In this document: positions 4,431 to 29,574 of the stretch, piece by piece | How positions within the stretch are numbered: the first letter of the stretch is position 1 | Layout of the letters: every line of letters starts with the position of its first letter | Assembly (NCBI RefSeq): GCF_003591035.1 | Contig: NZ_QYUO01000001.1 | Coordinates: 2,852,001-2,916,000 of the forward strand | Source: Noviherbaspirillum saxi | Lineage (GTDB): Bacteria > Pseudomonadota > Gammaproteobacteria > Burkholderiales > Burkholderiaceae_D | DNA: 64,000 nt | Direction of reading: 5' to 3' | The notes under the pieces: model-generated | Databases searched by the model: none | What the model was told of the DNA's origin: nothing | What the model saw: the letters and a program-made list of their open reading frames with translations, nothing else | Made by a program: the position numbers and the translations under genes

Positions 4431-4432
4431 AT

Positions 4433-7881: not shown

Positions 7882-7898
7882 TGTTATTTAACCCTGGG

Positions 7899-8741: not shown

Positions 8742-11700
8742 GGCTCGCTCCTTGTTTAGCACCCAACTTCTCAAACACCGTTGCACCCACTTCAGCGATC
8801 GCCGCGAGAAATACCTCGCGTTTCAGTTTGCCGTTCGCCATTTTTGCCAGCAACTCCTTGACGAGCGCATCGACCGCAATGCTGTCGCTTTCAGATACGT
8901 CAAACGTACCAGTCACCGTTTTTTTGGATCCAAATACGACGCCAATAGCACGACGAGTCGCTGGCCGGCCGCGGATCTGCGCAAGTGACTCCAGGCGGCG
9001 GAACTCCATTGCCCACGTCAATAGCTGCACCTCTCCGGCGTCGATGTCGTGGTCATTCCAATCGCGACTTGGTTTCCCGAGGGCCAACATCAGCAACCCT
9101 TCGATGTCCACTAAGGAGCCCTTGTATTCCGACAACCGCGTCGCAAACGCTTCCAACTTGAAATCAGCACCGACCCCATTCACCGTGTTTCCGCGCGCGT
9201 TGAGCGACTTTGCGCTGCCCTGGTGGTCTAGGGCCTCGAACATTCGTTTTTCGACGGCCCTAAGGCGCAGATCAAAGACCTCACTCAGCTCTCCCGTAAC
9301 TTCTGCGATCCGTTGAGCGAGCTGATTTGGGTTACGTGTTTCCAGGATGAGCGGCAGATCTGCAAATAACACCTTATGCGGGTCAGAAGCAGTAAGCAGC
9401 ACGCGGCGCACCTCCTGAGCCTCCTTTGACAAGAGGGTAGTTCGGCGTGCCCATGAAGGCAGCGCAAAGACGAGTGCCACCAAAGCACGCGCTGAATCAA
9501 GCGCATCAGGGGCTACCGGCGAACCCAACCGAGCGCTTAGCGCCGCGGATAGTGCCTCCAGCATTTTCTTTTCGCTCGCCTCAATACGGACAAAACGCCA
9601 GCCGATACGCTTTGGATCTTGCAGCCACTCGTCAATGTGAGCGTCTGTTACCTCTGGCGTGAACATGCGCTCAATGTATAAAGCGAGGTGATTGCGATTC
9701 ACCAAGAAGTACGCCAGGGCGAAGATCGGAAGCAGACCCGCCTTTACTCCCAGCGGGGGAGCTTGCCAGACTTTGTAGAGATCGGAAAGGCTTACGATGT
9801 CTTCTGAGTTTGCGAACAATTCTCGTGCCGCCTCCCAAACGGGCGCCATGGAAGCGCTTCTCACGTTCCCACCTGGCTCCGTAAATCGCCAGGCGCCTTT
9901 TTTCTCCCGATGCAGGCCCAATGCACGAACAACAGTGTGGTACAGGCCAGCATCCGCAGAGAATGAGGAGTAGCCCAAATTTTCCTGGCTCACATTATTG
10001 AGCATCGCATGCAGCAGCTCGCGTTGCGCTTTTGCGGCATTGCTGGAGAGTTCATCGCGGTTGATCAACTCACTATGGACAATAGGCGAGTTGGTAAAAA
10101 TGTCGTCCGCTATCTCCGAGGCCAAGTGGGAAAGCCCTTCGGCACTAGTGTGCGTCCTAACGTGTCCATCGTGTGCGTAGGACCAAGTCGCGCTATGAAA
10201 CGCCTCGCGCAGTTCGTCCGACAGCATGGAACGTGTGGCTTGGGTCCTAGAGGCAATCTCGCGCATCGCGATATCATCGCCGTCGAGTTGCTGACTATTC
10301 TTCCGAACATATTCCAGAGCCGCAAGTTCGCCGACTAAATCCTCGATTCGATCAGCGTTCGTCGGGGCGCCTACTAGCAGTCCTCGACCTTGTGCGATCT
10401 TTGCCAATTTCTTGGTCATTTTTAGACGTGCGTCTGCGTCTACATGCAGGTCGCGTTGTGCCAGTACGAGAAGGAATTCTCCGCACTGGCTTCGTCTTGG
10501 GGCGAATTTAGTTAGGTAGGATTCGACCTGTGTCTCGTGGATAATATTCCGCGAGAACCACCGCATGGCGCCGGTATTCCAATAGTGACGGCGAGCCGTA
10601 ACAGGCCCAAGATCGACCAGGTCGCTCATCCTCGACAGGTCTATCGCGCCTAGTTGTGTTTTGGCGTCACGAACCGCCGCCTCAATGTCAAAATCGCTGC
10701 CCGCGTAGACGCCATACGCCTCCAGATGCTTGCGGTAGATGAGAATCGATGCAGATGTGAGTTCGTTGAAAGCCTGTTCGATCGACTTTTGGTCGGACGA
10801 GTTGACGCAAGCCACGAGAAGATCTTTCTCGGCAGCCAACCCTGAACCATTGCGCAGAATCTCGATCAGCCCGACCGTTTTTACCAGCTCGACATGCAGG
10901 CACGAGAACCTTGCCTCTGCACGTTCAATGGCCTCAGCGCAGATTGCCCAGCGATGGCCGTCGGGTGAGGCCGCAATCGCAGGCTCAAAATTGGCCCGCA
11001 GATAGTCCCAGAATTGATGCGGCCAATAGTAGCTCGCCGGACTTGCGTCAAGACCGCGAATCACTTCGGTGAAGCCTAGGGGCTCCGCAGACGCCAAGAA
11101 GCTAAAAACGCTACGCTCGTTTTGCCCGAAGCGTTTTTTGGAGGCCGGGCCGAGCATTGCCGCAGTGACGGGATGCAGAGGCCAACAGGCGTCGAGCAGA
11201 TCCTTGATATCCGAAGCAGCGCTTGGTCGGCGTTTGCGAATGACCTTTGCCACACGCTCGGCAACTTTGGACGACGTGCGCTGATGATCCAAGTTGACTT
11301 GCAATGCGCGCCCAATGAGGGACACCATCTCGTCGGAGCCCGCCACCAGTGGGATATCGACGTACCGTCCTTGCACCTTTGCCCACTCTTGCTGCGTTGC
11401 TTGGCCAAGGCGTGAGGCATATTGCTCAAACGACTGATGGAGGATGCCGATGACGACCAAGTTGCCTTTGCAACGGCTCGCCGCCTCCGCAAGCTCTTGA
11501 TAGAAGCCGATATCTTCGCCAGTTTGAGCAGCGTATTCCAGGAATTTGCCCAGCTCGTCGACAATTAAAAGGACGCCGCCTACGTCATCGCGTGTTTCGG
11601 CCGCGCGTACCAATTCGGCCACTACGTCACGCCGCCCATCCGTTTGGGGCTTACGCCCGCGTGTGCCACGAAGGCGAGAATCAATGGCAGAACCAATTTC

Positions 11701-12078
11701 ATCAATGATCGAGGTACGCTTGCCGACGACGGGCAACACTGCCCAAGGCTTTCTGCCGCCAAAAAACTTTTGTATGCCGTCGCCGGCGCCGATGGCGAGC
11801 GCCGAGCGTGCCGCCTTCCGAACCGGTGCGTCTCCGCCTGCAATAGAGGCTAAGGCAAGCGCCAACGAAGATTTACCTCCGCCGTACGGACCGGTCCAAG
11901 TAAAAGCCCTCTGCTGCGTATTGACCAAATGATTCGCGGTCGTTTCCAGGACGGTTTGTGCCGAGGGCTGCAAAATGTATCCCTGCATTGCATCGACACG
12001 CCCGAAATCGGCGTCCAATCGAATCGACCGCAAAAACTGCCGATTGACGTCAATGTGATCTGAAAGCTTATCGACCAT
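8734..12078 (-). CDS. sspC: Large P-loop ATPase, SspC-like
   Basis: A 1114-residue ATPase. Walker A is GPYGGGKS (about 63-70) and Walker B is LLIVDELGKFLEYA (about 170-183). A long helical remainder carries no catalytic motif I recognise. ATPases of this size between a DUF4007 gene and a PAPS-reductase gene correspond to SspC of single-strand phosphorothioation loci. It overlaps the upstream sspB by 11 nt and the downstream sspD by 8 nt, so the three modification genes are translationally coupled. It probably organises nicking and sulfur insertion with SspB and SspD. The ATPase call is certain; the symbol is likely. Confidence 0.7.
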   Translation of the reverse strand: MVDKLSDHIDVNRQFLRSIRLDADFGRVDAMQGYILQPSAQTVLETTANHLVNTQQRAFTWTGPYGGGKSSLALALASIAGGDAPVRKAARSALAIGAGDGIQKFFGGRKPWAVLPVVGKRTSIIDEIGSAIDSRLRGTRGRKPQTDGRRDVVAELVRAAETRDDVGGVLLIVDELGKFLEYAAQTGEDIGFYQELAEAASRCKGNLVVIGILHQSFEQYASRLGQATQQEWAKVQGRYVDIPLVAGSDEMVSLIGRALQVNLDHQRTSSKVAERVAKVIRKRRPSAASDIKDLLDACWPLHPVTAAMLGPASKKRFGQNERSVFSFLASAEPLGFTEVIRGLDASPASYYWPHQFWDYLRANFEPAIAASPDGHRWAICAEAIERAEARFSCLHVELVKTVGLIEILRNGSGLAAEKDLLVACVNSSDQKSIEQAFNELTSASILIYRKHLEAYGVYAGSDFDIEAAVRDAKTQLGAIDLSRMSDLVDLGPVTARRHYWNTGAMRWFSRNIIHETQVESYLTKFAPRRSQCGEFLLVLAQRDLHVDADARLKMTKKLAKIAQGRGLLVGAPTNADRIEDLVGELAALEYVRKNSQQLDGDDIAMREIASRTQATRSMLSDELREAFHSATWSYAHDGHVRTHTSAEGLSHLASEIADDIFTNSPIVHSELINRDELSSNAAKAQRELLHAMLNNVSQENLGYSSFSADAGLYHTVVRALGLHREKKGAWRFTEPGGNVRSASMAPVWEAARELFANSEDIVSLSDLYKVWQAPPLGVKAGLLPIFALAYFLVNRNHLALYIERMFTPEVTDAHIDEWLQDPKRIGWRFVRIEASEKKMLEALSAALSARLGSPVAPDALDSARALVALVFALPSWARRTTLLSKEAQEVRRVLLTASDPHKVLFADLPLILETRNPNQLAQRIAEVTGELSEVFDLRLRAVEKRMFEALDHQGSAKSLNARGNTVNGVGADFKLEAFATRLSEYKGSLVDIEGLLMLALGKPSRDWNDHDIDAGEVQLLTWAMEFRRLESLAQIRGRPATRRAIGVVFGSKKTVTGTFDVSESDSIAVDALVKELLAKMANGKLKREVFLAAIAEVGATVFEKLGAKQGASHE

Positions 12079-13006
12079 AAGCCCTCCGCAATATTTCTTT
12101 CATCTTTTCTTTCATCGGCTCCTTGCCGACGCGGCTGACTTGGCGAATGCCAGCTGAATCAGTCCACTCCAGATAGGCGCGGGTAACATCGAAAATTCGC
12201 GACAGTCGATCGCCTACGGAATCTTCGTCCAGTTTGAAGACCCGCCCAGGTGAACCGTAGTCATGGGCAATCGAATTGAACGATAGTGTCGATTGCGTGT
12301 TTTTCGCCGCGGCCTCCCAGCGGCTCCAAAAATCGAGGAGTGCGAACGCAAACACCTCGTCTGGAAGGGAATATTGCGGCCCACGATGAAAATGATAGGT
12401 GTCTTTCGCACTCATGGAGAGCAGACCCAGGTCGGAAAGTAACGGCTCCGCGCTATCCTCTGTCGCGTTTTTCAACGCAACGGAGGTGTAGCTGCGGAGG
12501 CATACCTCGACATCTCGGGCGAGCGTCGTATTCGAACGGACCGCTTTATTCGCCTCCGCATACTCGTCTATTAATGCCACTACGTCGGCCGAGCGGAAGG
12601 ACTGACCCTGCAAATAGTTAAAAACGACATACCAAGTGGCCGAACGTGCCGCCCTGCCGGCAAGCATCCAATGAACAAGCCATATGGTCGCCTCACGTTC
12701 GAGATACGGGTCGCAACCGCGCACGCCAAAGAGAAGGTCGCCGATCTCTCCGCGGGTAAAGCCATCCTTGCCCGCCTTGCGAATCACATCGCATGCGAGT
12801 GCCCAATGTTTGATCGACGACACCATGTTTTTACCGACGCCGAAACGTTGGATAGCCTCGTCGTCGGCGAACACACCCTTCGGGGCGTACTCCGGATATG
12901 GTTCAATTTGGGAGAATGCCTTGCGCAACCAAAGTTGCCGCAGCGGAAAAGTTTCGTGCCCAGAGAATACGGGCTCGATATCGGCAGGGAATCGAATTAT
13001 TGTCAT
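12068..13006 (-). CDS. sspB: DUF4007 family protein, SspB-like nickase
   Basis: A 312-residue DUF4007 protein. The N-terminal signature is VFSGHETFPLRQLWL, with FGVGKNMVSSIKHW some 45 residues further on. From memory of the SspABCD literature, SspB carries this domain and nicks DNA so sulfur can be inserted on one strand. I place the start at ATG 13006; a TTG at 13042 would add 12 residues (MKRLLTGRSLQS). Neither has a strong ribosome site. It is the first gene of the minus-strand ssp operon, which faces the divergent small gene across a short region of repeated AAATGAGC motifs. Confidence 0.7.
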   Translation of the reverse strand: MTIIRFPADIEPVFSGHETFPLRQLWLRKAFSQIEPYPEYAPKGVFADDEAIQRFGVGKNMVSSIKHWALACDVIRKAGKDGFTRGEIGDLLFGVRGCDPYLEREATIWLVHWMLAGRAARSATWYVVFNYLQGQSFRSADVVALIDEYAEANKAVRSNTTLARDVEVCLRSYTSVALKNATEDSAEPLLSDLGLLSMSAKDTYHFHRGPQYSLPDEVFAFALLDFWSRWEAAAKNTQSTLSFNSIAHDYGSPGRVFKLDEDSVGDRLSRIFDVTRAYLEWTDSAGIRQVSRVGKEPMKEKMKEILRRAYGR

Positions 13007-13114
13007 AGACTGGAGACTTCTGCCAGTTAGTAAGCGTTTCAACTGGTGAAGTCTACCAGCTTGACCGATGGTCAGCTAGAGGAGAAACCCGTTTTGTTGC
13101 AGTTTTACCCAGGG

Positions 13115-18454: not shown

Positions 18455-19119
18455 TCGCCGCCCTTCATCTGCCCGCCACGCTGGCCGGCCAGCCGCTTGC
18501 CGCGTGCGGCATGCCGCCCGAGCTGGCGGCGCTGTTGTCGCTGCATAACATGACGTGCGCCGACGTCATCGGGACCTGCTGGAGCCAGTCCGGCACGGTG
18601 CACGTCACCCTGCAAAATGAATTCGAGGATGCGCTCGGCTATCACTTCGACTGGGGCTGGGTGATCCCGGCGATGCCGCGCTGGTATGTCGATGATGACG
18701 GCAAGGCCGGCCCGCCCGTATGGCGGTTCGTGCCCACCGCCGTCTGGCAGGAGCTTGCGCAAGCCGGACGCCTTGCGGCCCCGGTGCATGACATCATCGG
18801 CCAAGCGTCGAAGCCGGTGCGCTACGGCATCAGTCAAGTCATGCGCGCCCCCTTGAGGCTCCACGGCACCGATCCGTCGTTCAGCGCGGATATGCACTAC
18901 GAAGAGCTGGAGCGCGCGCTGCCGCACGACCTGTGCACCCTGTGGCCGTACTGCGCCGAGGATGCCGATCCGGCCGTGCTGGTGCAGTGGCTCGAGCGCG
19001 CGTTCCTGCCCCGCGCCATGCTGGCGCTGCTGCGGCTGCTCAAGTCGGCGGCGCTGGCGCGCATTCATGAGATCGAGAAACAGCAGCTTGGCAACGCATC
19101 GAAAGGAGGACGGCCATGA
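18451..19119 (+). CDS. Uncharacterised protein, second gene of recombinase operon
   Basis: 222 residues, overlapping its neighbours at both ends by 4 nt (ATGA each time), so the three genes form one tight translational unit. No known motif, signal peptide or membrane helix is visible. A Trp-rich middle (YHFDWGWVIPAMPRWYVDDD) is its most distinctive part. A role with the recombinase downstream is likely from coupling, but no function can be assigned. Confidence 0.6.
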   Translation: MIAALHLPATLAGQPLAACGMPPELAALLSLHNMTCADVIGTCWSQSGTVHVTLQNEFEDALGYHFDWGWVIPAMPRWYVDDDGKAGPPVWRFVPTAVWQELAQAGRLAAPVHDIIGQASKPVRYGISQVMRAPLRLHGTDPSFSADMHYEELERALPHDLCTLWPYCAEDADPAVLVQWLERAFLPRAMLALLRLLKSAALARIHEIEKQQLGNASKGGRP

Positions 19120-20177
19120 GCCACAATCCTGACTGGAAGACGCGGCTGCAGGCAATCCTCAACGAACACAACCACCGCCACGCGAAGCGTCACAAGGAGG
19201 TATCGCACCGCACCCGCGACGCGCGCGCGAGTACGGTGTTCATGCTGTTCAGTCTGTTGCGCGATCTCGGTTTTCAGCCGGATCCGCCGAACCTCGACGG
19301 CACGCACGTCAAATATCTGTTCTGGTACCTGACCTGCGATCCCCGGATTGCCGATCTTTGCCGCCGGCGCGGCGTGCCGATGCTGCCCAAATCCCATAGC
19401 GCGGCGTATCTGCAATTCCTGGCCAGCACGCTGCGCACGTTTGCCGGGTGGATCAACAAACCCGGCCTGATCCTGCCGCCCGAGCGCTACGGGATTGATC
19501 CTGCCCTGTTTGAACGTACCTATGTGGCGCAGGAGGACAAGGGTTGGGCCGCGCACGACATCGATATCCCGCAACTGCTCGCGCGTGTCGCGCGCATCGA
19601 CGAGCGCGTGGCCATCATGCTGGAGCTGGTGTGGCGGTTCGGCCTGCGCCGCAAGGAAGCGGTGATGTTCCAGCCGCACCTGGCGGTGGTGCCGGCCGGG
19701 CTGGTGCCGATTGACAGTCCAATTGCCGAGCAGTACATCACCTGCCTGTCGGTCGAGCGCGGCACCAAGGGCGGGCGCCTGCGCCTGATCCCGCTGGTAT
19801 CCGATGCGCAGCGCGACGTGATCGAACGCGCCAGGCGCTTTGCGCCGTATCCCGCGTCGTATCTTGGCCATCCCGGCAGGACGCTGCTGCAATCGCTGGA
19901 CCGCTACAAGAACGTGCTGAGCCAGGCCGGCATCACGAAGAAGGAACTGGGCATCACCGGACACGGCTTGCGGCATACGTTCGCTGGCGACAAGTATTTT
20001 GAGCTGGCCAAGGTGGCATGTCCAATTCGTGGCGGTGATCCACTGCGTGATCCAGACCTGCTGGAGCGCGTGTTACGCAGCGTGTCCCAGCAATTGGGTC
20101 ATAACCGGACGTCTATCAGTCAGGCCTATCTGGGCTTGATGACGCAACGTGAAAGCGATACCAACTTGAATATCTGA
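19116..20177 (+). CDS. Tyrosine recombinase / phage-type integrase
   Basis: 353 residues. Catalytic landmarks in order: Arg in RFGLRRKEAV, a Lys-bearing beta-hairpin around GTKGGRLRLIPL, H-x-x-R in GHGLRHTFA, the His of QQLGHNRTS, and Tyr in SISQAYLG. It looks complete. It belongs to the integrase-domain proteins found as the third gene of small mobile operons rather than to the P4 type seen at the left edge. The window thus holds two recombinases of different lineage, and this one may move the middle part of the island. It is the last gene of the overlapping triplet. Confidence 0.85.
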   Translation: MSHNPDWKTRLQAILNEHNHRHAKRHKEVSHRTRDARASTVFMLFSLLRDLGFQPDPPNLDGTHVKYLFWYLTCDPRIADLCRRRGVPMLPKSHSAAYLQFLASTLRTFAGWINKPGLILPPERYGIDPALFERTYVAQEDKGWAAHDIDIPQLLARVARIDERVAIMLELVWRFGLRRKEAVMFQPHLAVVPAGLVPIDSPIAEQYITCLSVERGTKGGRLRLIPLVSDAQRDVIERARRFAPYPASYLGHPGRTLLQSLDRYKNVLSQAGITKKELGITGHGLRHTFAGDKYFELAKVACPIRGGDPLRDPDLLERVLRSVSQQLGHNRTSISQAYLGLMTQRESDTNLNI

Positions 20178-20333
20178 CGCCATAACCGTGTACGGTGCCA
20201 TTTTTCGCATAAACGATGTTGGCGGAGGAGCAATAAATGCTGCCATAATGTGAAGTTATGGCGACGCTGAAAACACCATTGGACATGGCCGTCGCGTCTT
20301 CATTAGATAGAAGCGACATTCAGTGGATGGCGA

Positions 20334-21422
20334 ATGAAAGACAATATCGTAAAAATCCTTCAAGAAACGCCTTGGCTCAAGGGACGCGAAATCGCTCATC
20401 GGCTCAACGCTGACAAAAAAGAAGTGAATGCGTTCCTCCACAGTCACAGCGACCTTTTTGTTCAAGATAACGAATTTTTCTGGTCCTTGGCGAACCAATT
20501 CCGTGTGGAATTTGCAAAGAATACTTGGATAACCAGCGCATCATTTGAACATTCGCTTGCGCGCTGCGGATCGCCGCTCGACGATGATTGTTCATCTGTG
20601 GTTTTTGTGCTTCCAGAAGGTTGCAAAGTCCTACTTGAGGCAGCGGCTCGTCTGATGGCCCTATGCAATCAATTGGCCTGGAAGGGCAAGCGAGTCGTTT
20701 TGGATTTTTCCGACAGCGGTTCCACGCGTAGCTACTTCAACCGTATTGGGTTCTTTGATCATCTTGCACCAGCTGTCACGGTGATTCCCGCGCGTCCAAC
20801 GGTGTCTGGTGCGGAGATCTTTCGTGGAAACGCCGACACGCTCATGGAATTTGGTGCGATCGACCCGATCGCGCCGGATGAATCGATTCCCGTGCAGTTG
20901 AAACATAGTTTCGTGAATCATGCGGGCGAAGAATATTCTCAGCCAGCATTTACCGTCCTCGCAGAATTGTTCGATAACGTACGTGATCATGCAGAATCGC
21001 CGCTCCCTGGATTCGCCGCACTGCAATGCTATAAAGCGACGAAAGCGCCGCACATTCAGACGGTCATTTCCGACAGTGGCAAGGGGATCGTCGAAACGCT
21101 CAGGCCTATTCTGCAGACAAGGTATCCGGACGTCGCAAACAAAATCGCCGAAGCTGGCGATGCTGCCGATGCTCATCTCGTCAGAGAAATTTTCGAACGC
21201 GGGCAGATTACCCAATGCGAACCGGGACGCGGTCTCGGGTTAAAGGCAAGCGGGGATGTTGCTGCAAAATTCAAGGCAAAGATATCTATTAGACAAGAAA
21301 CGTTTGAAGTGATCTTGCAGTACACAGGGGCGAAACGCCCCAAGTTTACTCATTCGTTGAACCTGCCCCGCATTCTCGGAACACATATTTGTTTCGATTT
21401 TTTACTTGACCAAAGAGCGTAA
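20334..21422 (+). CDS. HTH + STAS-like + GHKL ATPase regulator
   Basis: 362 residues in three parts. A winged-helix-like N-terminus comes first (about 1-50, WLKGREIAHRLNADKKEVNA). An alpha/beta segment resembling STAS-like folds follows (about 85-150, RVVLDFSDSGSTRSYFNRIG). Last is a GHKL ATPase with N-box ELFDNVRDHA (about 211-220), G1 box ISDSGKGI (about 245-252) and G2 box GRGLGLKASGDVA (about 298-310). No phospho-acceptor His region is seen, so it is more like an anti-sigma-type kinase or ATP switch. It is followed at once by a STAS-like DUF4325 gene, a kinase/antagonist-type pair, directly upstream of the ubiquitin-like operon. Confidence 0.7.
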   Translation: MKDNIVKILQETPWLKGREIAHRLNADKKEVNAFLHSHSDLFVQDNEFFWSLANQFRVEFAKNTWITSASFEHSLARCGSPLDDDCSSVVFVLPEGCKVLLEAAARLMALCNQLAWKGKRVVLDFSDSGSTRSYFNRIGFFDHLAPAVTVIPARPTVSGAEIFRGNADTLMEFGAIDPIAPDESIPVQLKHSFVNHAGEEYSQPAFTVLAELFDNVRDHAESPLPGFAALQCYKATKAPHIQTVISDSGKGIVETLRPILQTRYPDVANKIAEAGDAADAHLVREIFERGQITQCEPGRGLGLKASGDVAAKFKAKISIRQETFEVILQYTGAKRPKFTHSLNLPRILGTHICFDFLLDQRA

Positions 21423-21441
21423 ATCTCCTTAAATTAAAGTG

Positions 21442-22005
21442 ATGAATGAGAAGACTCACATAATCGACCTTCATGAATTGGTTGATAACTCACACCCGCA
21501 CGGCAATGCGCAAGGCAAAGAGGTCTACCGAAAATTGGTAGATTTAATCGATGCCGAACCGAATTGCCGCGTGTTTGGTATCTCACTCAAGAATATCGAC
21601 GCCACTGATGCCTCCTTTCCGCGGGAAAGTGTCGTTTCGGTCGCCAAACACTATCGGGAAGAAAAAGGTCTTTTTCTGATACATATCAAAACTCGCGATA
21701 TCGTTGACAACTGGAAATATGCCGCAGTAGCAAAAGAACAACCGTTGATCATTTGGTATCCCAAGAATGAATACGAGATCATCGGTCCGGAGATCAATTC
21801 AGCTACGCGAAGCTTGGTCAATTACGTGATCGAGCGAGGTACGGTGTCCACTTCTCAAACCGCGCAAGACCTCGACATCTCAGTCCAAAACGCCAGCACA
21901 AGGCTTAAAAAGCTGTTCAGCCAAGGCTACATCCTCCGCTCCGAAGCCATCTCGGAAACGGGCGGCATCGAATATTTGTACGAAGCCATCAAATATTCTG
22001 ATTAA
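21442..22005 (+). CDS. STAS-like (DUF4325) protein with C-terminal winged helix
   Basis: 187 residues. The N-terminal half fits the STAS-like DUF4325 fold (LVDNSHPHGNAQGKEVYRKL, then CRVFGISLKNIDATDASFPR). The C-terminal 65 residues are a MarR-like winged helix (VNYVIERGTVSTSQTAQDLD, then SVQNASTRLKKLFSQGYILR). A GTG three bases earlier is an alternative start. The site CTTAAATTAAAG lies just before the start, and a related palindrome lies before the next operon. The protein may therefore be a DNA-binding switch under control of the GHKL partner, regulating itself and the ubiquitin-like genes. That model is inference. Confidence 0.7.
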   Translation: MNEKTHIIDLHELVDNSHPHGNAQGKEVYRKLVDLIDAEPNCRVFGISLKNIDATDASFPRESVVSVAKHYREEKGLFLIHIKTRDIVDNWKYAAVAKEQPLIIWYPKNEYEIIGPEINSATRSLVNYVIERGTVSTSQTAQDLDISVQNASTRLKKLFSQGYILRSEAISETGGIEYLYEAIKYSD

Positions 22006-22082
22006 ACTCCTTGATTTAACCAGAAAACCATCGTAGTATTGTTTGTGAATCCGCGTGGAATCGATGCGGGTTAAGTTAAACA

Positions 22083-22095
22083 GCTTAATTTAAGC
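22083..22095. promoter_or_regulatory. Palindrome GCTTAATTTAAGC before the ubiquitin-like operon
   Basis: A perfect 13-nt palindrome lies 13 bases before the ATG of the 58-aa gene. Related AT-rich words occur just upstream (GGTTAAGTTAAAC, near 22069) and before the DUF4325 gene (CTTAAATTAAAG, 21428-21439). They look like binding sites for one regulator, possibly the winged-helix DUF4325 protein. Confidence 0.4.
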
Positions 22096-22108
22096 AGAAA
22101 GGTAAAAT

Positions 22109-22285
22109 ATGTCTACAAATCCGCCCAAAGGGGACGGCCATCGTAACGGCGCAGTCCGTCAACGCTCCCAGACGCAAACGCCGTCCGGCAACTGGGTAAA
22201 ACGTGACACCAACAATGGCCAGTTCATGGACATGAAAACGTCCGACAAGACGCCATTCAAGGGTGTCCGGAAAGAACGCAAGTAA
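22109..22285 (+). CDS. 58-aa conserved small protein heading the ubiquitin-like operon
   Basis: The ribosome site AGAAAGG lies 5-6 nt before the ATG. The peptide begins MSTNPPKGDGH and ends with the well-ordered block SGNWVKRDTNNGQFMDMKTS, then KTPFKGVRKERK. Short proteins with GNWVKRD...G.F...K....PFKGVR.E tails are widespread in bacteria and of unknown role. Its place 50 bp before the ubiquitin-like gene suggests a partner or substrate of the pathway. The highly basic Lys-rich tail could be a conjugation target; this is speculation. Confidence 0.65.
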   Translation: MSTNPPKGDGHRNGAVRQRSQTQTPSGNWVKRDTNNGQFMDMKTSDKTPFKGVRKERK

Positions 22286-22335
22286 CTACATGGGGGGCGG
22301 AAGCCCTCGCTCCACTATTCTCCGAAAGGAATCTT

Positions 22336-22653
22336 ATGAAATCCGAAATGCATTCTCCAGATCAGCAAGCCGACAGTGCCGGCGCTGCGGCGCACGGTGG
22401 CAATACCGACCAAGCGCACGAGTACGAAATTGTCGTCAATGCGCGGCAAGTCGACGTCTCCAAGGGCACGCTCTCTTATATCGAGGTCGTCCGACTGGCG
22501 TTCGAACACCCCGTGATCGACGAGAACACCATCTATACCGTCGCCTACAAGCGCGGCCATGGAGACAAGCCGGAAGGCACCATGGTCGATGGCGACACCG
22601 TGAAAATCAAGAATGGGATGATCTTCTATGTCACACCAACTAATCGATCGTAG
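22336..22653 (+). CDS. Ubiquitin-like modifier (multiubiquitin-domain family)
   Basis: 105 residues. A 26-residue disordered N-terminus precedes one beta-grasp domain of the bacterial multiubiquitin family: HEYEIVVNARQVDVSKGTLS, IEVVRLAFEHP, IYTVAYKRGHG, and the closing IKNGMIFYVTPTNRS. Only one ubiquitin-like unit is present and the tail ends in TNRS, not GlyGly, so trimming or a non-standard conjugation end must be considered. The ribosome site AAAGGA precedes the ATG. The gene overlaps the E1 gene by 26 nt. Role: protein modifier of a bacterial ubiquitin-like pathway, usually linked to phage defence. Confidence 0.8.
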   Translation: MKSEMHSPDQQADSAGAAAHGGNTDQAHEYEIVVNARQVDVSKGTLSYIEVVRLAFEHPVIDENTIYTVAYKRGHGDKPEGTMVDGDTVKIKNGMIFYVTPTNRS

Positions 22654-23800
22654 TCCAGACCTGAAGCGCCTGCGGGACGAAGGATACGAAGTTGAAATTC
22701 GTTCCCAGCATCTCCTGGTGCATGGAATCCCGTACCTCAACGCGACCGGAACGGCGCGGCGCGGCACCCTCGTGTCGGACTTGACCATGGCTGGCGACGT
22801 AACCGCCCGCCCAGGCAGTCACGCCGCCCATTTCATAGGAGAGCATCCGTGCCGGAAGGATGGAACGCAAATCTCGCAAATTAAGCACGGGACCGGCAAC
22901 AATCCGCTCGCACCCGACATCATGGTCAACCATTCGTTTTCCAACAAGCCTGCGAACGGCTACGCGAATTACTATGAAAAGATGACGACGTACATCGCGA
23001 TCATCTCGGCGCCTGCGCAGTCGGTTGACCCGTCGCTTACCGCGAAGACGTTCAAGCTGATCGAGTCTTCCGAGTCGGATTCGGTGTTCAAGTACCTCGA
23101 TACATCGTCCAGCAGGGCCGGCATCGGCGCCATGTCGGCAAAATTCAAGGGCTTGAAGATCGCGATCATCGGCTTGGGCGGAACTGGATCGTATACGCTG
23201 GACCTCGTCGCAAAGACAGAAGTAGCTGAAATCCACCTCTACGACAAAGACAAGCTGCTGCAACACAATGCATTTCGATCGCCGGCGGCACCGTCGCAAG
23301 AAGAGTTGTTCACACAACCTCCCAAGGTTGCGCATTACTATCATCTCTACTCGAAAATGCGCCGCGGCATCGTTCCTCACGAAACCTTCGTCGACGAATC
23401 GAACGTCCACGAACTTGCTGACATTGACTATGTGTTCATCTGTGTCGACAAGGGTTCCGTCAAGCGGCCGATCATCGCAACGCTTCAAGCGGCTGGAATT
23501 CCGTTCATCGATGTAGGCATGGGCGTACATGCGGTCGGCGACAAGCTGTGGGCCACTTTGCGCGTCACGACCAGCTCGAAAAAGAAGACGGATCACGTGC
23601 TGACGCGCATTTCGTTGTCCGACGATGATGATGACAAGTATTCGCAGAACATCCAGATCGCCGATCTGAATTGCTTGAATGCGGCACTCGCGGTGCTGAA
23701 GTGGAAAAAGCTCTGCAGTTTCTATCTCGACGAAGAAAACGAGCACAACAGCACCTACACGACGAGCATCAATCTTTTCACGAGCGAAGACAGATCATGA
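22628..23800 (+). CDS. E1-like ThiF-fold adenylyltransferase with DUF6791-like N-terminus
   Basis: 390 residues. Residues about 1-170 form an N-terminal domain resembling DUF6791, with a single cysteine (GEHPCRKDG, C75). An E1/ThiF Rossmann domain follows: GLGGTGS (about 182-188), Asp in HLYDKDKL (about 206), the Asn/Arg pair in HNAFRSP (about 214-217), and an ICVDKGSVKRP segment. C272 and C349 are further cysteines that might carry the thioester. The protein should adenylate the ubiquitin-like tail with ATP. No separate E2 gene is seen, so the N-terminal domain might do that job. Its stop overlaps the next ATG (ATGA). Confidence 0.8.
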   Translation: MSHQLIDRSPDLKRLRDEGYEVEIRSQHLLVHGIPYLNATGTARRGTLVSDLTMAGDVTARPGSHAAHFIGEHPCRKDGTQISQIKHGTGNNPLAPDIMVNHSFSNKPANGYANYYEKMTTYIAIISAPAQSVDPSLTAKTFKLIESSESDSVFKYLDTSSSRAGIGAMSAKFKGLKIAIIGLGGTGSYTLDLVAKTEVAEIHLYDKDKLLQHNAFRSPAAPSQEELFTQPPKVAHYYHLYSKMRRGIVPHETFVDESNVHELADIDYVFICVDKGSVKRPIIATLQAAGIPFIDVGMGVHAVGDKLWATLRVTTSSKKKTDHVLTRISLSDDDDDKYSQNIQIADLNCLNAALAVLKWKKLCSFYLDEENEHNSTYTTSINLFTSEDRS

Positions 23801-24246
23801 TGCGCACGCAAGCTCTCGTACCGAAATTCAGCGAATTCATTCCGAAGAACATTGAGGATGGCATCCTCTATGTCTCGCTGCCCTACGGAACCGCCGTTCA
23901 TCGTTGCTGCTGCGGATGCGGCAATGAGGTCGTCACGCCCCTGTCTCCCGCAGACTGGAAAATCAGAATCGATGGCGAATACGTATCGCTCGATCCCTCG
24001 ATTGGCAATTGGCATCTCGCATGCAAATCCCATTACTGGATACGGCACAACAAGATTGTCTGGGCAGCGCAATGGAACGAACATCAGATCCGCGCCGGCC
24101 GCATTCGCGATCAAGCCGCCAAGAAGCGCTATTACGATAAAGCCGTCACGCCAGCCTCTAGCGGCGACAGTACCAACCAAGTACACGGCGCTGACGTTCC
24201 GCGGTCAGTTGGAATCTGGGCATGGATTAAATCGTGGTTTTCGTGA
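23797..24246 (+). CDS. DUF6527 family protein (BubE-like)
   Basis: 149 residues starting at the ATGATG that overlaps the E1 stop. Family signatures: a Cys cluster HRCCCGCGNEV (about 36-46), LDPSIGNWHLAC (about 65-76), KSHYWIRHNKIVWA (about 77-90). Conserved Cys, Ser and His suggest a metal-bound or hydrolase-type active site. I recall this family as the BubE/peptidase-type component of bacterial ubiquitin-like operons, possibly trimming the modifier or removing conjugates. A hydrophobic C-terminus (VGIWAWIKSWFS) may contact a membrane or partner. The family call is good; the catalytic role is uncertain. Confidence 0.7.
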   Translation: MMRTQALVPKFSEFIPKNIEDGILYVSLPYGTAVHRCCCGCGNEVVTPLSPADWKIRIDGEYVSLDPSIGNWHLACKSHYWIRHNKIVWAAQWNEHQIRAGRIRDQAAKKRYYDKAVTPASSGDSTNQVHGADVPRSVGIWAWIKSWFS

Positions 24247-24295
24247 CAGCACCCTACGGTCGAACTATCCACCTGGAGAAAGGAGAGCGAAAAGC

Positions 24296-24370
24296 CTAAC
24301 GTAACCGCCGGCCACCGCAATTGGCCAATGCTGCGAACGCGGGACGCTGCTTTCACCGGCGTTACGTTTA
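24296..24370. other. Bulged inverted repeat between DUF6527 gene and next gene
   Basis: TAACGTAACCGCCGG on the left pairs with CCGGCGTTACGTTTA on the right, with one bulged base on each strand and an internal loop of about 45 nt. It starts with GCCTAAC, recalling an attC end, but the right side lacks the GTTRRRY partner. It could be a terminator or a structured RNA element. Confidence 0.35.
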
Positions 24371-24488
24371 ACCGAATCATGATAAGAATGACAGGACCAA
24401 TATGACTACTGCACCTCCGCATTCATCTCAAGATTACCTGCAAAATCCAAATAATTTGGCGAAATCCTAAACGCATACGAGGTAACTG

Positions 24489-25568
24489 TTGAAAATCAGC
24501 GAACTCATCAAAACGTGCTTTGCACACGATCTAGACGGAAAGCAAACTGATGTTTGCGTAAGCAGCATCGCAGTAAATCTCCTGAAACCGACGATGCCTG
24601 TCGTCGCTATTGAAATGAAAGCGTCGGACGATCTGTTCCGGATGATGGTTACCGCCGACGACGCGCATATTTTCGTCGAAGGCGGTGTCTTTCATTTCAA
24701 TGCACTTTACGTGGTCACGAATCATTTTCCGGCGCCCAGAATCTATTTCATCAAAATGGAGGACCTGCTGCAAGTCGCGAGCTTGGGTTCTTATCTGGAC
24801 CGACGAGGGATGAAATTGCGACCGATCGATGGAAAAAAATTCTCCCAGTTGATTGACGATCGACATTATGGGGACCGCTACCAGCAATGGCATCGCCGCT
24901 GGGAAGCGAACAGCAAGACGTTCAAAGGGTTACTCGATGGCCGAATCAAGAATACCGCCGTAGAGCAAGGAATGTGGTTATCGTCAGATGGTAATTGCTT
25001 GGTCTGCGGCGACAGGACTGATCGCATGTCAACGGCCACGGTCATTGGCAAGACGGGCATGATGATTGGCCTTCAATTGTGTCAAAGACATGAGGCCGAA
25101 GCACAAAATCAATCGACGCTGCTCGAATTCATATCAATCAAGATGCGAGTGCCTGCACCGTTCCTGAGTGGGGCGAAGGTTACTTTGCATAGTGACATGA
25201 CGATATCGATGTCATGCGACGCCATATACAATGAACTGGATTGTGAGATAGAAAAGGTCGAAGAAAACACGATCACAGCACTTAGAAAATCGGGTTTCCG
25301 GATAATCCTTCGACAAGATGGACTGACTAACTACGCTTACAATATTCAAGATCCAAATCGGGTACCTATTTCCCGAATTGATTCGGCCGATCATCATAAC
25401 GTTGAATATGGTCCGGACCATCTTCATCGGAATCTCAGTAAGTCGAAGAAGAACATCGTCGAGCCAAGTTTCACGTACGGCTTCGCGATAGCGGATCTTA
25501 AAGTGATAAAACAACTCGTCGAGGAGGCGGAATCTCAATGGAGTAATTCGTTGAAAGCCTCACAGTGA
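24489..25568 (+). CDS. Uncharacterised 359-aa protein next to the ubiquitin-like operon
   Basis: The start is TTG with GAGG 6-8 nt before it. No family is recognised. The N-terminal 120 residues look alpha/beta. A zinc-type pair CLVCGD (about 172-177) is followed by CQRH (about 200-203), so a C-x2-C ... C-x2-H ribbon in mid-protein is likely. A hairpin AAAGCC-(10 nt)-GGCTTT at the stop may terminate the transcript. It lies 242 bp after the DUF6527 gene on the same strand, so it may be an effector or target of the pathway. That is context only. Confidence 0.55.
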   Translation: MKISELIKTCFAHDLDGKQTDVCVSSIAVNLLKPTMPVVAIEMKASDDLFRMMVTADDAHIFVEGGVFHFNALYVVTNHFPAPRIYFIKMEDLLQVASLGSYLDRRGMKLRPIDGKKFSQLIDDRHYGDRYQQWHRRWEANSKTFKGLLDGRIKNTAVEQGMWLSSDGNCLVCGDRTDRMSTATVIGKTGMMIGLQLCQRHEAEAQNQSTLLEFISIKMRVPAPFLSGAKVTLHSDMTISMSCDAIYNELDCEIEKVEENTITALRKSGFRIILRQDGLTNYAYNIQDPNRVPISRIDSADHHNVEYGPDHLHRNLSKSKKNIVEPSFTYGFAIADLKVIKQLVEEAESQWSNSLKASQ

Positions 25569-25575
25569 CGGCTTT
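25554..25575 (+). terminator. Weak hairpin terminator after 359-aa gene
   Basis: AAAGCC and GGCTTT pair around a 10-nt loop that includes the stop codon, with one further T following. The T-run is short, so efficiency is doubtful. Confidence 0.35.
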
Positions 25576-25644
25576 TGACCGTGTGCTGGATCGTCTGTTA
25601 CTGACTTGGTTGACCCATCGCTTTCCAAGCGGTGTCTTGGCTGG

Positions 25645-25881
25645 TTATCCGGCGCCCCTCGTTTCTTCAACGGCCATGCAGCAACGGCTATACTCGCGGT
25701 CGATCAGCCAGTGCAGGAACCGGGTGGCTTCCGACACGCCCCAGTAATAATGCTTGCAGTGCGCGATGTAGGCATCCAGGTCTTCAATGGTTTTCACATC
25801 GTCCGGCGCAAAGCCTGTGATTTGCGTGAAGCGCGCGACCTCGCGTGGGGTCAGCCGGATATGGTTTCCTAGACGGATCAT
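25645..25881 (-). CDS. Small uncharacterised island protein (78 aa)
   Basis: From ATG 25881 the peptide is regular (MIRLGNHIRLTPREVARFTQ, then DDVKTIEDLDAYIAHCKHYY). The upstream extension of the frame to 26094 reads as non-coding. AAAGGAGAG lies about 15 nt upstream, a longer spacing than usual. No domain recognised. It is codirectional with the gene at 25971-26414 and probably transcribed with it. Confidence 0.5.
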   Translation of the reverse strand: MIRLGNHIRLTPREVARFTQITGFAPDDVKTIEDLDAYIAHCKHYYWGVSEATRFLHWLIDREYSRCCMAVEETRGAG

Positions 25882-25970
25882 GGTTTGACCACTCTCTCCT
25901 TTCTTACTCCGCACGTGCAGACCGGCGACGAATGACGGTTCACCAGCGGCCTGCCGTGCGCGACGCAGGT

Positions 25971-26414
25971 TCAGGCCAGCTTGCCCGGCAAATTCAGATG
26001 GGCATCGATCTTGTCGGAGAAACCCTCGGGGTCGTTGCGGTAGCGTTCGATCTCGTCCAGCACCCGATGCTGGCCGTCGGCGCTGCGCATCCATCCCGGT
26101 CCCCAGCGCCGGTCCGCATAGCGTTCAAAGCGCGCGGTGTCGACTCCGAGCCCGACCGCTGCGGCAAGAACCTGGTCCGCATCGACCGTCAATGCCGGGT
26201 CCGGGCATGCCTGGACAATCGCGCGCTCGATGTCGTCGAACGGACGGCTCTCGGTGACGCCGCATTCGGACAGGCTTTTTGCAACGCGATAGTCCGCGAT
26301 CTGCCTCGCCGGCGCCTTGATTCCGACGCCAGCCGGAATGTGCGCCTGCCCTTCCCCGGGCAGCGTGGCAACGACGGGAAGTGCGTCCCGAAGGGCGTCA
26401 AGGGCATGTTTCAT
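25971..26414 (-). CDS. Uncharacterised island protein (147 aa)
   Basis: The ATG at 26414 is preceded by CAGGAG. The sequence has several helical, charged segments (FDDIERAIVQACPDPALTV, then HRVLDEIERYRNDPEGFSD) and no membrane or signal segment. It is typical of hypothetical proteins of integrative elements. A homologous segment (copy B) lies upstream of it, as copy A does upstream of the 15.5-kb gene. Confidence 0.5.
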   Translation of the reverse strand: MKHALDALRDALPVVATLPGEGQAHIPAGVGIKAPARQIADYRVAKSLSECGVTESRPFDDIERAIVQACPDPALTVDADQVLAAAVGLGVDTARFERYADRRWGPGWMRSADGQHRVLDEIERYRNDPEGFSDKIDAHLNLPGKLA

Positions 26415-26626
26415 GCTGAGGCTCCTGTGCAATACGCGTGATCTCGCTTCACCAGCATCGCGCGGGAACCCGTTCGTTCAAGTCGCGTTCCGCGCCCTGT
26501 TTCGCCAGGCAAGCTGGGGGCCCGCAAACGGTTGCTTCGCGCTGCACGAACCGTCCGATACGGTCTCTTACTCGCCTGGACCGATTTCCTGCGATGGACA
26601 AGCCGTTTCCGGCGCGCTTGCCCATG

Positions 26627-28431: not shown

Positions 28432-28470
28432 CCTTCAACGGCAATTTGTGAAACAAATTGCCGTTGAAGG
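28432..28470 (+). other. Perfect 18-bp leader hairpin
   Basis: CCTTCAACGGCAATTTGT (28432-28449), loop GAA, then its exact complement (28453-28470). It sits in the expected 5' leader, about 50 nt before the antitoxin ATG, with no T-run after it. It may be an operator for the HTH antitoxin or an RNA hairpin controlling translation or stability. Confidence 0.75.
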
Positions 28471-28522
28471 GTTCGGCACACTGAATCATTTGCGCGCACT
28501 TTTAAAACCCAGGAGAAATGAC

Positions 28523-28996
28523 ATGTCCAGCAGCCTCGATCTTGAAATGGTCTTGGATAGCAAGGAAGATCTGGAGCTCGCAAAAGCTGCTCAGCGTTGC
28601 ATCGTCAGTTCGCTGGATCACTCCAAGGCCATCAATATTGCCATCGTTGAAGATGGCGTGGAGCGCTTGAGCGAATCGCCGGTGCTAAGACTGCCACCGA
28701 AAGTATTGCGCCTGTTTGCTGACGTCCTTGGCTCGTTGGCACAAGGCAAAGCGATCGCCGTCATGCCCAAGGAACTCGATGTTACGACGCAAGAGGCGGC
28801 GATGTTCCTCAATGTTTCTCGTCCTTATCTTGTCCGACTGTTAGAAGAAGGCAAGATCCCATTTCATAAAGTGGGAACACATCGAAGAATACGATTTGAA
28901 GATGTAGTCCAGTACAAGGAAGACCGGCAGAAAATTTCCAAGGACGCCCTGCAGAAGCTGGCCGATCAAGCCCAGGAGCTTGGCATGGGGTATTAA
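28523..28996 (+). CDS. HTH antitoxin of excisionase/MerR-like type
   Basis: 157 residues from an ATG after AGGAG. The N-terminal half is helical and lacks known motifs. The C-terminal half is an excise-type helix-turn-helix: LDVTTQEAAMFLNVSRPYLV, then RLLEEGKIPFHKVGTHRRIR and FEDVVQYKED. The stop and the ATG of the next gene overlap by one base (TAATG). Gene order, coupling and the PIN partner identify it as the antitoxin. It probably represses its own promoter upstream. Confidence 0.85.
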   Translation: MSSSLDLEMVLDSKEDLELAKAAQRCIVSSLDHSKAINIAIVEDGVERLSESPVLRLPPKVLRLFADVLGSLAQGKAIAVMPKELDVTTQEAAMFLNVSRPYLVRLLEEGKIPFHKVGTHRRIRFEDVVQYKEDRQKISKDALQKLADQAQELGMGY

Positions 28997-29574
28997 TGGC
29001 CGGGTCTTACAGCTATACCGTAATTCTCGATGCGTGTGTCTTATATCCGGCACCGCTGCGGGACTTGCTGTTGAGCCTCGCTGCCGAGGGGATATTCCGC
29101 GCTCGCTGGACCTCAATCATTCAGGATGAATGGACAAGAAATGCATTAGCCAATCGTCCTGATTTGAAACCTGATGCACTTCGCAATACCGCAACGTTGA
29201 TGAATCAGGCAGTCGAGGATAGTTTGGTGGAAAACTTCGAGTATCTGATCGAGTCACTTTCACTTCCTGATCCAAACGACAGGCATGTCCTTGCCGCTGC
29301 GATTGTGGGCCACGCAGATGCTATCGTCACTTTCAATCTCAAGGATTTTCCTGAAGCGACGACCAAGGTCCACGGCATTGAAATCCTGCATCCGGATGAT
29401 TTCCTTATTGCGCAATATGACTTGGCTCCCGTGAAAATGCTCAAGATCGTCAAGGCACTCCGCGAGCGGCTCAGGAAGCCACCAAAGACGGCACAAGAGC
29501 TCATCGCCACGTACCAGTCCCAAGGCTTGCCGCAAACTTGCCAGTTGCTGGAAGATGCCATCGAATTGATCTGA
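28996..29574 (+). CDS. PIN-domain toxin
   Basis: 192 residues of the PIN_3 class. Acidic active-site residues are seen in VILDACVLYP (Asp near 11), Glu in QDEWTRNAL, the Asp pair in DPNDRHVLAAA, and Asp in IVTFNLKDFP. PIN toxins are metal-dependent ribonucleases that cleave tRNA, rRNA or mRNA. Translation is coupled to the HTH antitoxin. The C-terminal 60 residues (LKIVKALRERLRKPPKTAQE) are a basic helical extension common in this subgroup. Confidence 0.88.
   Translation: MAGSYSYTVILDACVLYPAPLRDLLLSLAAEGIFRARWTSIIQDEWTRNALANRPDLKPDALRNTATLMNQAVEDSLVENFEYLIESLSLPDPNDRHVLAAAIVGHADAIVTFNLKDFPEATTKVHGIEILHPDDFLIAQYDLAPVKMLKIVKALRERLRKPPKTAQELIATYQSQGLPQTCQLLEDAIELI

What the first reader, a model, noticed from the sequence alone, without database searches (positions are those of the whole stretch)
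20334..25568. GHKL/STAS switch pair joined to a ubiquitin-like conjugation operon
A GHKL-ATPase protein (HTH + STAS-like + ATPase) and a DUF4325/winged-helix protein sit directly upstream of a 58-aa protein, a ubiquitin-like protein, an E1 with DUF6791-like N-terminus, a DUF6527/BubE-like protein and a 359-aa protein with a possible Cys/His metal site. The parts of the modifier pathway are known from bacterial Bil/Bub-type loci. The switch pair and the 359-aa protein as fixed partners would be new. The shared AT-rich palindromes before the DUF4325 gene and before the small-protein gene suggest common control.
Basis: partly seen in the sequence, partly recalled or inferred. Interest (0 to 1): 0.85.

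Follow-up and report, generated by a model that had tools for sequence, protein, structure and literature searches.

The report
Damage-switched bacterial ubiquitin-like operon
A bacterial defence island carries a ubiquitin-like protein-tagging operon behind a two-gene kinase/repressor switch that matches a DNA-damage switch published in 2026, so the main find is a further example of a known arrangement, with a few small features that look new.

Summary
In detail: seven genes and the palindromes are where stated. The switch pair is CapK+CapS (Chambers et al., EMBO J 2026, PMC13373217), a ssDNA-activated kinase and the repressor it phosphorylates, already reported upstream of Bub (bacterial ubiquitination-like) operons. 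All nine functional residues that I checked are kept and both published operator types are present. The operon (one ubiquitin-like domain, DUF6791+ThiF E1, DUF6527 protein) lacks the E2 and JAB domains of the published CapKS-Bub locus and fits a JAB-less variant listed by Iyer 2006 (row 6e). Ubl-E1-DUF6527 order held in 12 of 12 relatives read; none has CapKS, 10 have other regulator types (some weak matches). The 359-aa protein (Cys/His site plus TumE-toxin domain) looks like a mobile neighbour: 0 of 8 other copies lie beside Bub or CapKS genes. Apparently new: two CapS boxes 73-74 bp apart in 4 of 8 CapKS loci; and the 58-aa protein (PADLOC candidate PDC-S38) sits beside WYL or XRE-ImmA/IrrE regulators in 12 of 19 other genome loci, so it is not Bub-specific. 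New member of a known kind; a role against phage is unproven here, and for Bub according to that paper.

The parts
20334..21422 (+). CapK: GHKL kinase (HTH-STAS-GHKL by homology)
   Evidence: HATPase_c E 6.6e-5; 43.7% identical to E. roggenkampii CapK, with W68, N218, K237, K239 all kept as W65, N215, K234, K237
21429..21437 (.). narrow CapS operator TTAAATTAA just before capS
   Evidence: 17 of 24 bases equal the published narrow oligo in register; overlaps a weak promoter-like site 21406-21435 (4 found in the region, 5.5 expected by chance)
21442..22005 (+). CapS: STAS-winged-helix repressor (ORF opens at GTG 21439; ATG 21442 is in my view the likelier start)
   Evidence: 47.8% identical to E. 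roggenkampii CapS; S54, N145, K151, G169, G170 all kept; PDB 9z71 E 4.5e-52
22002..22019 (.). wide CapS box 1, overlapping the capS stop codon
   Evidence: TTAAACTCCTTGATTTAA, 15 of 17 consensus positions
22076..22093 (.). wide CapS box 2, before the 58-aa gene, 74 bp from box 1
   Evidence: TTAAACAGCTTAATTTAA, 17 of 17 consensus positions; 19 of 24 bases equal the published wide oligo
22109..22285 (+). S38: basic 58-aa protein (PADLOC PDC-S38), first gene after the CapS boxes
   Evidence: PADLOC E 2e-30; calculated pI 11.0; 18-row alignment with 14 invariant columns
22336..22653 (+). Ubl: single multiubiquitin-type domain ending TNRS, no fused E2
   Evidence: Multi_ubiq E 3.4e-17; PDB 9cd2 E 2e-16
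22628..23800 (+). E1: DUF6791 + ThiF adenylating domain, overlapping the Ubl gene by 26 bases
23797..24246 (+). DUF6527 protein (same place as BubE in L023; probably protein Y of Iyer 2006) with a Cys/His cluster
   Evidence: DUF6527 E 2.2e-25; C37, C38, C39, C41, H73, C76, H79
24489..25568 (+). TumE-domain protein with an internal CxxC...CxxH site (TTG start): neighbour, not shown to be part of the system
   Evidence: TumE 4.9e-6; 46 homologues; fold predicted at mean pLDDT 87.3, no solved match at E 0.001
19116..20177 (+). tyrosine recombinase next to the cargo (context only)
   Evidence: Integrase_1 4.5e-8; GC 64% in this stretch against 48-54% in the cargo

Best explanation
This is a CapK/CapS-regulated operon of the Bub kind, in its DUF6791 (JAB-less, E2-less) branch, inside a defence island. 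Without DNA damage CapS dimers sit on the narrow box at capS and on the two wide boxes before the 58-aa gene and keep capS and the operon off (inferred from homology and operator identity). Damage or infection makes single-stranded DNA; CapK binds it and phosphorylates CapS on the serine equivalent to S54 (S59 here); the CapS dimer falls apart and the operon is expressed (shown in print for E. roggenkampii, inferred here). The E1 then adenylates the C-terminus of the ubiquitin-like protein and passes it on, with DUF6791 as the fused substrate- or carrier-handling domain, the DUF6527 protein as accessory or target-recognition factor and S38 as a co-induced small basic accessory (inference). The target and the benefit to the cell are unknown.
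For: CapK and CapS homology with all 4 + 5 functional residues that I checked conserved; a solved relative that is by sequence the published CapS; narrow and wide operators of the published type at the published relative positions; published binding, phosphorylation and ssDNA activation; Ubl-E1-DUF6527 order in 12 of 12 DUF6791 relatives read; the only solved Ubl match, 9cd2, ends in the same 40 residues as the Ubl of the DUF6791 locus L008; the closest solved E1 is BubCD; CapKS followed by a Ubl+E1 operon in 5 of 8 CapKS loci read, window included; gene overlaps Ubl/E1 and E1/DUF6527; SspB, SspC and SspD matches at 7899-13042 in the same window.
Confidence: 0.88

Rival explanations
1. The ThiF/Ubl/DUF6527 genes are a small biosynthetic or sulfur-transfer module (ThiS/MoaD-like), not a protein-tagging pathway.
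Against: Best sequence match is BubCD (4.7e-10) and Foldseek ranks eight BubCD chains first; the Ubl is of the multiubiquitin family and ends in T-x-T-[DNS]-[KR]-S without a di-glycine in the window and 12 of 12 relatives; no thiamine or molybdopterin gene is annotated beside the cassette in L014-L016, the three plasmid loci with annotation.
Confidence: 0.1
2. The 359-aa TumE-domain protein is the toxic effector of the system, with the Ubl operon as its controller.
For: Directly downstream on the same strand, similar base composition; TumE is a tested translation-blocking toxin family (PMC10584680, passages); and PMC4963859 (passages) reports potential TA loci (COG2856/DUF955) next to 70% of multiubiquitin genes.
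Against: 0 of 8 other copies near Ubl, E1 or CapKS; 0 of 12 E1 relatives have it; 242-bp gap before it. I noticed no antitoxin-like gene beside it, but ran no TumA model. The COG2856/DUF955 genes of the 2016 paper may be ImmA/IrrE-type regulators like those next to the relatives here (inference).
Confidence: 0.08

Closest known systems
CapK+CapS-controlled Bub operon of Enterobacter roggenkampii (PMC13373217; a plasmid copy with the same CapS accession read here as L023)
   Same: CapK then CapS, narrow operator before capS, two wide boxes 74 bp apart after capS, then Ubl, E1 and DUF6527 genes
   Different: There the Ubl is BubAB (two Multi_ubiq stretches plus a Prok-E2_E domain) and the E1 is BubCD (Prok-JAB + ThiF); here one Ubl domain, no E2, DUF6791 in the JAB place, and a 58-aa gene first. 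The letters A to E are assigned by me from the names of the solved chains and the gene order
PolyUbl operons, row 6e, variant with 'domain X' in place of JAB (Iyer, Burroughs, Aravind 2006, PMC1779556; passages and table rows seen)
   Same: Ubl (one listed species has a solo Ubl), E1 with a non-JAB N-terminal domain, Cys/His metal-binding protein Y
   Different: The passages seen mention no CapKS and no 58-aa gene; identity of domain X with DUF6791 and of Y with DUF6527 is my inference
CapW- or CapH+CapP-controlled Bub operons (219 of 544, PMC13373217 section 7)
   Same: The DUF6791 Ubl-E1-DUF6527 cassette follows WYL or HTH+ImmA/IrrE genes in L014-L016
   Different: WYL or HTH+ImmA/IrrE regulators instead of CapKS
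TumE-TumA toxin-antitoxin (PMC10584680, passages)
   Same: C-terminal TumE/DUF6516 domain in the 359-aa neighbour
   Different: Extra N-terminal part and CxxC...CxxH site; no antitoxin noticed beside it (no TumA model run)

Membership tests
CapK+CapS | CapK with GHKL active-site Asn, ssDNA-site Trp and Lys pair | tested here: met
   N215, W65, K234, K237
CapK+CapS | CapS STAS phospho-serine and wHTH contacts N145, K151, GG169-170 | tested here: met
   S59, N151, K157, G175, G176
CapK+CapS | narrow and wide TTAA palindromes before capS and before the next gene | tested here: met
   21429-21437; 22002-22019; 22076-22093
CapK+CapS | ssDNA-activated phosphorylation and derepression | not testable with these tools
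   needs protein; published for the E. roggenkampii pair
Bub operon, BubAB/BubCD/BubE type | multiubiquitin Ubl + E1 + DUF6527 in that order | tested here: met
Bub operon, BubAB/BubCD/BubE type | Prok-E2_E and Prok-JAB domains | tested here: not met
   absent at E up to 1 in window proteins, present in L023; so it is filed under the DUF6791 branch. Whether the authors of the Bub papers count that branch as Bub I could not read
Iyer 2006 row 6e, domain-X variant | Ubl + E1 with a distinct non-JAB N-terminal domain + Cys/His protein | tested here: met
   identity of DUF6791 with domain X is inferred, and the exact C-x3-C-x(35-38)-H-x2-C spacing is met only approximately (C37/C38-C41, H73-C76)
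E2 (UBC/RWD) fold for DUF6791 | detectable profile or fold match to E2 | tested here: inconclusive
   hhalign against 3 BubB-type sequences: score 9.6, not significant; no E2 model in Pfam for 30 of 30 members; structure rows covered residues 156-390
TumE toxin | TumE/DUF6516 domain above the curated cut-off | tested here: met
   26.9 bits against 23.4
TumE-TumA system | adjacent TumA antitoxin | not tested
   no TumA model was run; none was noticed by eye

The most novel reading that the evidence does not exclude
S38 is a shared, so far unnoticed component of damage-induced defence units: a small basic protein made first whenever CapW, CapKS or XRE-ImmA/IrrE regulators release their operons, whatever the effector cassette, perhaps acting on nucleic acid or on the regulator. 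In this locus it is coupled to a one-enzyme ubiquitin-like ligase in which DUF6791 replaces both E2 and JAB, under a seven-turn two-box CapS operator.
Probability: 0.2. Interest if true: 0.65.

Novelty: new member of a known kind. Interest (0 to 1): 0.36.

Why it matters
It extends the published CapKS switch to a Bub-like branch without E2 and JAB domains and gives a compact system in which to ask how a bacterial E1 might conjugate without a separate E2 or a protease. The two CapS boxes at 73-74 bp give a testable rule for repression, and S38 offers one small gene that may be common to many DNA-damage-induced defence operons.

Tried and rejected
The DUF4325 label: not returned. Fixed seven-gene unit: rejected by the neighbourhoods read. 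TumE protein as effector: no support. The hairpin at about 24298-24370 as an attC-like or otherwise meaningful structure: z -0.76, 41 of 200 shuffles fold as well; dropped. Rfam at E 0.5 on 19000-26500: nothing. DUF6791 as E2 or JAB by profile comparison: neither significant, 3 sequences a side only; the VIA-align rows span residues 156-390, so DUF6791's fold is untested. TumE-protein fold: no solved match at E 0.001. The 359-aa protein in 72,556 plasmid and 50,697 phage records: no match at E 1e-5; in 369 class genomes only the window's own. DNA of the Vibrio S38 copy (L020) in the E. coli genomes: none. CapS in viral contigs: none confirmed. One literature search for PDC-S38 gave one unrelated yeast paper. 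A search on DUF6527, DUF6791, multiubiquitin, BubE and 'bacterial ubiquitin-like' found 16,917 papers because 'bube' matches names such as Buber; of the 30 listed, PMC4963859 was on topic and PMC11354881 perhaps (not opened). That the two-box operator and the S38 pattern are new rests on section 9 and passages of PMC13373217 and only.

Rows dropped before counts. Of the 11 CapS plasmid loci read (of 43 records), 5 (L089-L093) have no recognised CapK and were left out of the CapKS count. In the S38 counts the two overlapping matches in G009 count once (that match has an in-frame stop, so it may be a broken gene), G365, found in both searches, once, and the window not at all; the viral locus L043 (phage context, no regulator seen) is outside the 19. 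The DUF6791 count uses 9 genome-contig loci and 3 of 115 plasmid records; L003/L011 (two Edaphobacter MAGs), L008/L009 and L006/L007 are close pairs, so fewer than 12 are independent. Viral loci L094-L100 are not in it: L094 has CapP/CapH-like neighbours, L095 and L097 begin at or inside the E1, L096 shows no regulator, and L098-L100 were weak matches not read. Two of the eight other 359-aa loci are partial (L085, L086). The shuffles scanned one strand, the real gaps both, and the consensus comes from the published site, so the E. roggenkampii score there is circular.
Full report
What is there. Seven co-directional genes lie at 20334-25568. Family searches give a GHKL ATPase, a winged-helix protein, a 58-aa protein that PADLOC lists as PDC-S38, a single multiubiquitin-type domain, a DUF6791+ThiF E1, a DUF6527 protein, and a 359-aa protein whose C-terminal part matches the toxin family TumE. 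The Ubl and E1 genes overlap by 26 bases; the same 26-base overlap is annotated in L014, L015 and L016. The stretch 20-26 kb is 48-54% GC against 63-67% in the stretches directly beside it (17-20 and 26-28 kb); other parts of the region (12-17 and 28-30 kb) are 50-59%. With the recombinase gene beside it, it looks like acquired cargo (inference). The same window holds SspB, SspC and SspD matches at 7899-13042, so I call this a defence island.

The switch pair is known. A paper of June 2026 (PMC13373217; abstract, sections 7, 9, 11, 12 and passages read) names a HTH-STAS-GHKL kinase CapK and a STAS-wHTH repressor CapS, found first beside 59 of 544 Bub operons and then, among 443 capK homologues all followed by capS, in front of 231 Bub operons. 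[quoted passage not shown] Aligned to the E. roggenkampii proteins (read here as L023, which carries the CapS accession named in the paper), the window pair is 43.7% and 47.8% identical, and every residue that I checked is kept: CapK W68, N218, K237, K239 and CapS S54, N145, K151, G169, G170. The nearest solved chains are 9z71 and 9z72.

The operators are of the published type. TTAANTTAA occurs 4 times in the window (0.23 expected), 3 of them here; TTAA-N10-TTAA occurs 3 times (0.21 expected), all here. The site before capS equals the published narrow oligo at 17 of 24 bases and the site before the 58-aa gene equals the wide oligo at 19 of 24. Of six CapKS loci scanned (window, L020-L023, L053), four have an exact narrow box at capK-capS (not L020, L053) and five have an exact wide box after capS (not L022).

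A detail not in the section of the paper that I read (section 9, which names one wide palindrome): there are two wide boxes, the first overlapping or just after the capS stop, the second before the next gene. They start 74 bp apart in the window (22002, 22076), in L021 and in L023, and 73 bp apart in L053; L020 has two weaker boxes 85 bp apart in opposite orientation, and L022, L087 and L088 show no such pair: 4 of 8 loci. In the second boxes of L021 and L053 the TTAA half-sites are not all exact (15 of 17 each). Single boxes of at least 14 of 17 positions arose in 1-7 of 2000 shuffles of these gaps (6 loci; one strand scanned). Since 74 bp is about seven helical turns, CapS dimers would face the same side; joint binding is my inference.

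Neighbourhood tests. Twelve DUF6791 loci from elsewhere (9 from genome contigs; 3 of 115 plasmid records; some are close pairs) all have Ubl before and DUF6527 after the E1. None has a match to CapKS, S38 or the 359-aa protein. Regulators recognised in 10 of 12: WYL in L014 and L016; HTH and/or ImmA/IrrE-type (CapH/CapP-like) in L003, L006-L011 and L015, several at low scores (15-36 bits in L003 and L008-L011); none in L004 and L005. So regulators appear to be exchanged in front of one cassette. Conversely, of 8 loci with both CapK and CapS (window, L020-L023, L053, L087, L088), 5 are followed by a Ubl+E1 operon (window, L022, L023, L053, L088), one by SAVED/nucleotidyltransferase (CBASS-type) genes (L020), one by genes of unknown function (L021), and in L087 an insertion sequence follows; S38 is first in 3 of 8 (window, L020, L021). 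CapS was found in 2 of 343 genomes of the family and 43 of 72,556 plasmid records.

The 359-aa protein. Its family (46 homologues at E 0.001) keeps C170, C173, C198, H201. Outside the window it was found in 6 of 382 other genomes sampled from the family (the tally of 7 of 383 includes the window genome) and in 2 viral contigs; in none of these 8 places is a Ubl, E1 or CapKS match near. Two of the eight are partial (L085, L086). In L012 and L013 it lies, by my reading of the ORFs, among phage genes; in L083 it follows a reverse-transcriptase gene. I take it as a mobile neighbour.

S38. The 58-aa protein is in 10 of 369 class genomes and 12 of 398 phylum genomes, the window's genome included in both, and in 72 of 72,556 plasmid records. 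Of 19 other genome loci read, 9 have a WYL-type regulator beside it (L044, L045, L047, L048, L049, L052, L065, L067, L069), 3 an XRE-ImmA/IrrE regulator (L050, L051, L066), and 7 neither (L046, L064, L068, L070-L073; L072 is at a contig end and L073 is a weak match) (Pfam confirmed WYL in L048 and L069 and HTH + Peptidase_M78 in L066). Of 10 plasmid loci read (of 72 records), 2 have CapKS, 5 WYL (L030 only by a Pfam match below its cut-off) and 3 neither, one of these at the record start. A YdjM-type gene follows in L020, L044, L045, L047, L048, L051 and L066 (PF04307 confirmed in L020 and L048). No matched control genes were counted, so this is a hint, not a measured enrichment.

How it most likely works. 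Shown in print for the relative: ssDNA to CapK, phosphorylation of CapS, derepression. Shown here: the residues and operators. Inferred: that the cascade runs in this host, that the E1 activates and transfers the Ubl, that the DUF6527 protein and S38 are accessories. The paper says that Bub has not been shown to protect against phage (passage), so a general stress role stays open.

Verdict. The odds are as first written; the check changed wording and disclosures only.

Noticed in passing
window 22109-22285; L020, L021, L024, L025, L027, L028, L044, L045, L047, L048, L049, L052, L065, L067, L069: The 58-aa PDC-S38 protein recurs next to WYL or CapKS regulators of unrelated cassettes; an alignment of 18 copies from several phyla is 51-82% identical to the window copy.
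   Followed up: partly
L020:5176-5544, L048:1425-1784, also L044, L045, L047, L051, L066: A YdjM-type gene (PF04307 in L020 and L048) often follows S38. That E. coli YdjM is SOS-regulated is from recall.
   Followed up: no
window 22002-22093; L021, L023, L053: Two wide CapS boxes 73-74 bp apart.
   Followed up: yes
window 3477-13042: Defence genes on the minus strand: SspB, SspC, SspD matches with a ResIII helicase, an MzaB-like GHKL protein and a DrmC-like protein.
   Followed up: no
window 28448-29574: Excisionase-type HTH protein followed by a protein close to the RSP_2648 PIN family (below its curated cut-off), possibly a toxin-antitoxin pair.
   Followed up: no
L088:3508-7500: Sphingobium plasmid: CapK-like and CapS-like genes, multiubiquitin protein, two unannotated genes without Pfam matches at E 0.01, and a stand-alone ThiF: a further Bub-like layout without DUF6527 or DUF6791 matches.
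   Followed up: partly
L003, L006-L011, L015 (upstream of the Ubl gene): PMC4963859 calls the COG2856/DUF955 genes next to multiubiquitin genes toxin-antitoxin loci; the ImmA/IrrE-type genes seen here suggest that at least some are CapH+CapP-like regulators (inference).
   Followed up: no
L023:3853-8475: The legend of Fig. 1C of PMC13373217 calls the E. roggenkampii locus CBASS-associated while its text calls it Bub; the copy read here is annotated multiubiquitin/ThiF/DUF6527.
   Followed up: no
L083:3178-7348: By its longest ORF, a TumE-domain relative overlaps the end of a 1022-aa reverse-transcriptase gene by 32 bases.
   Followed up: no
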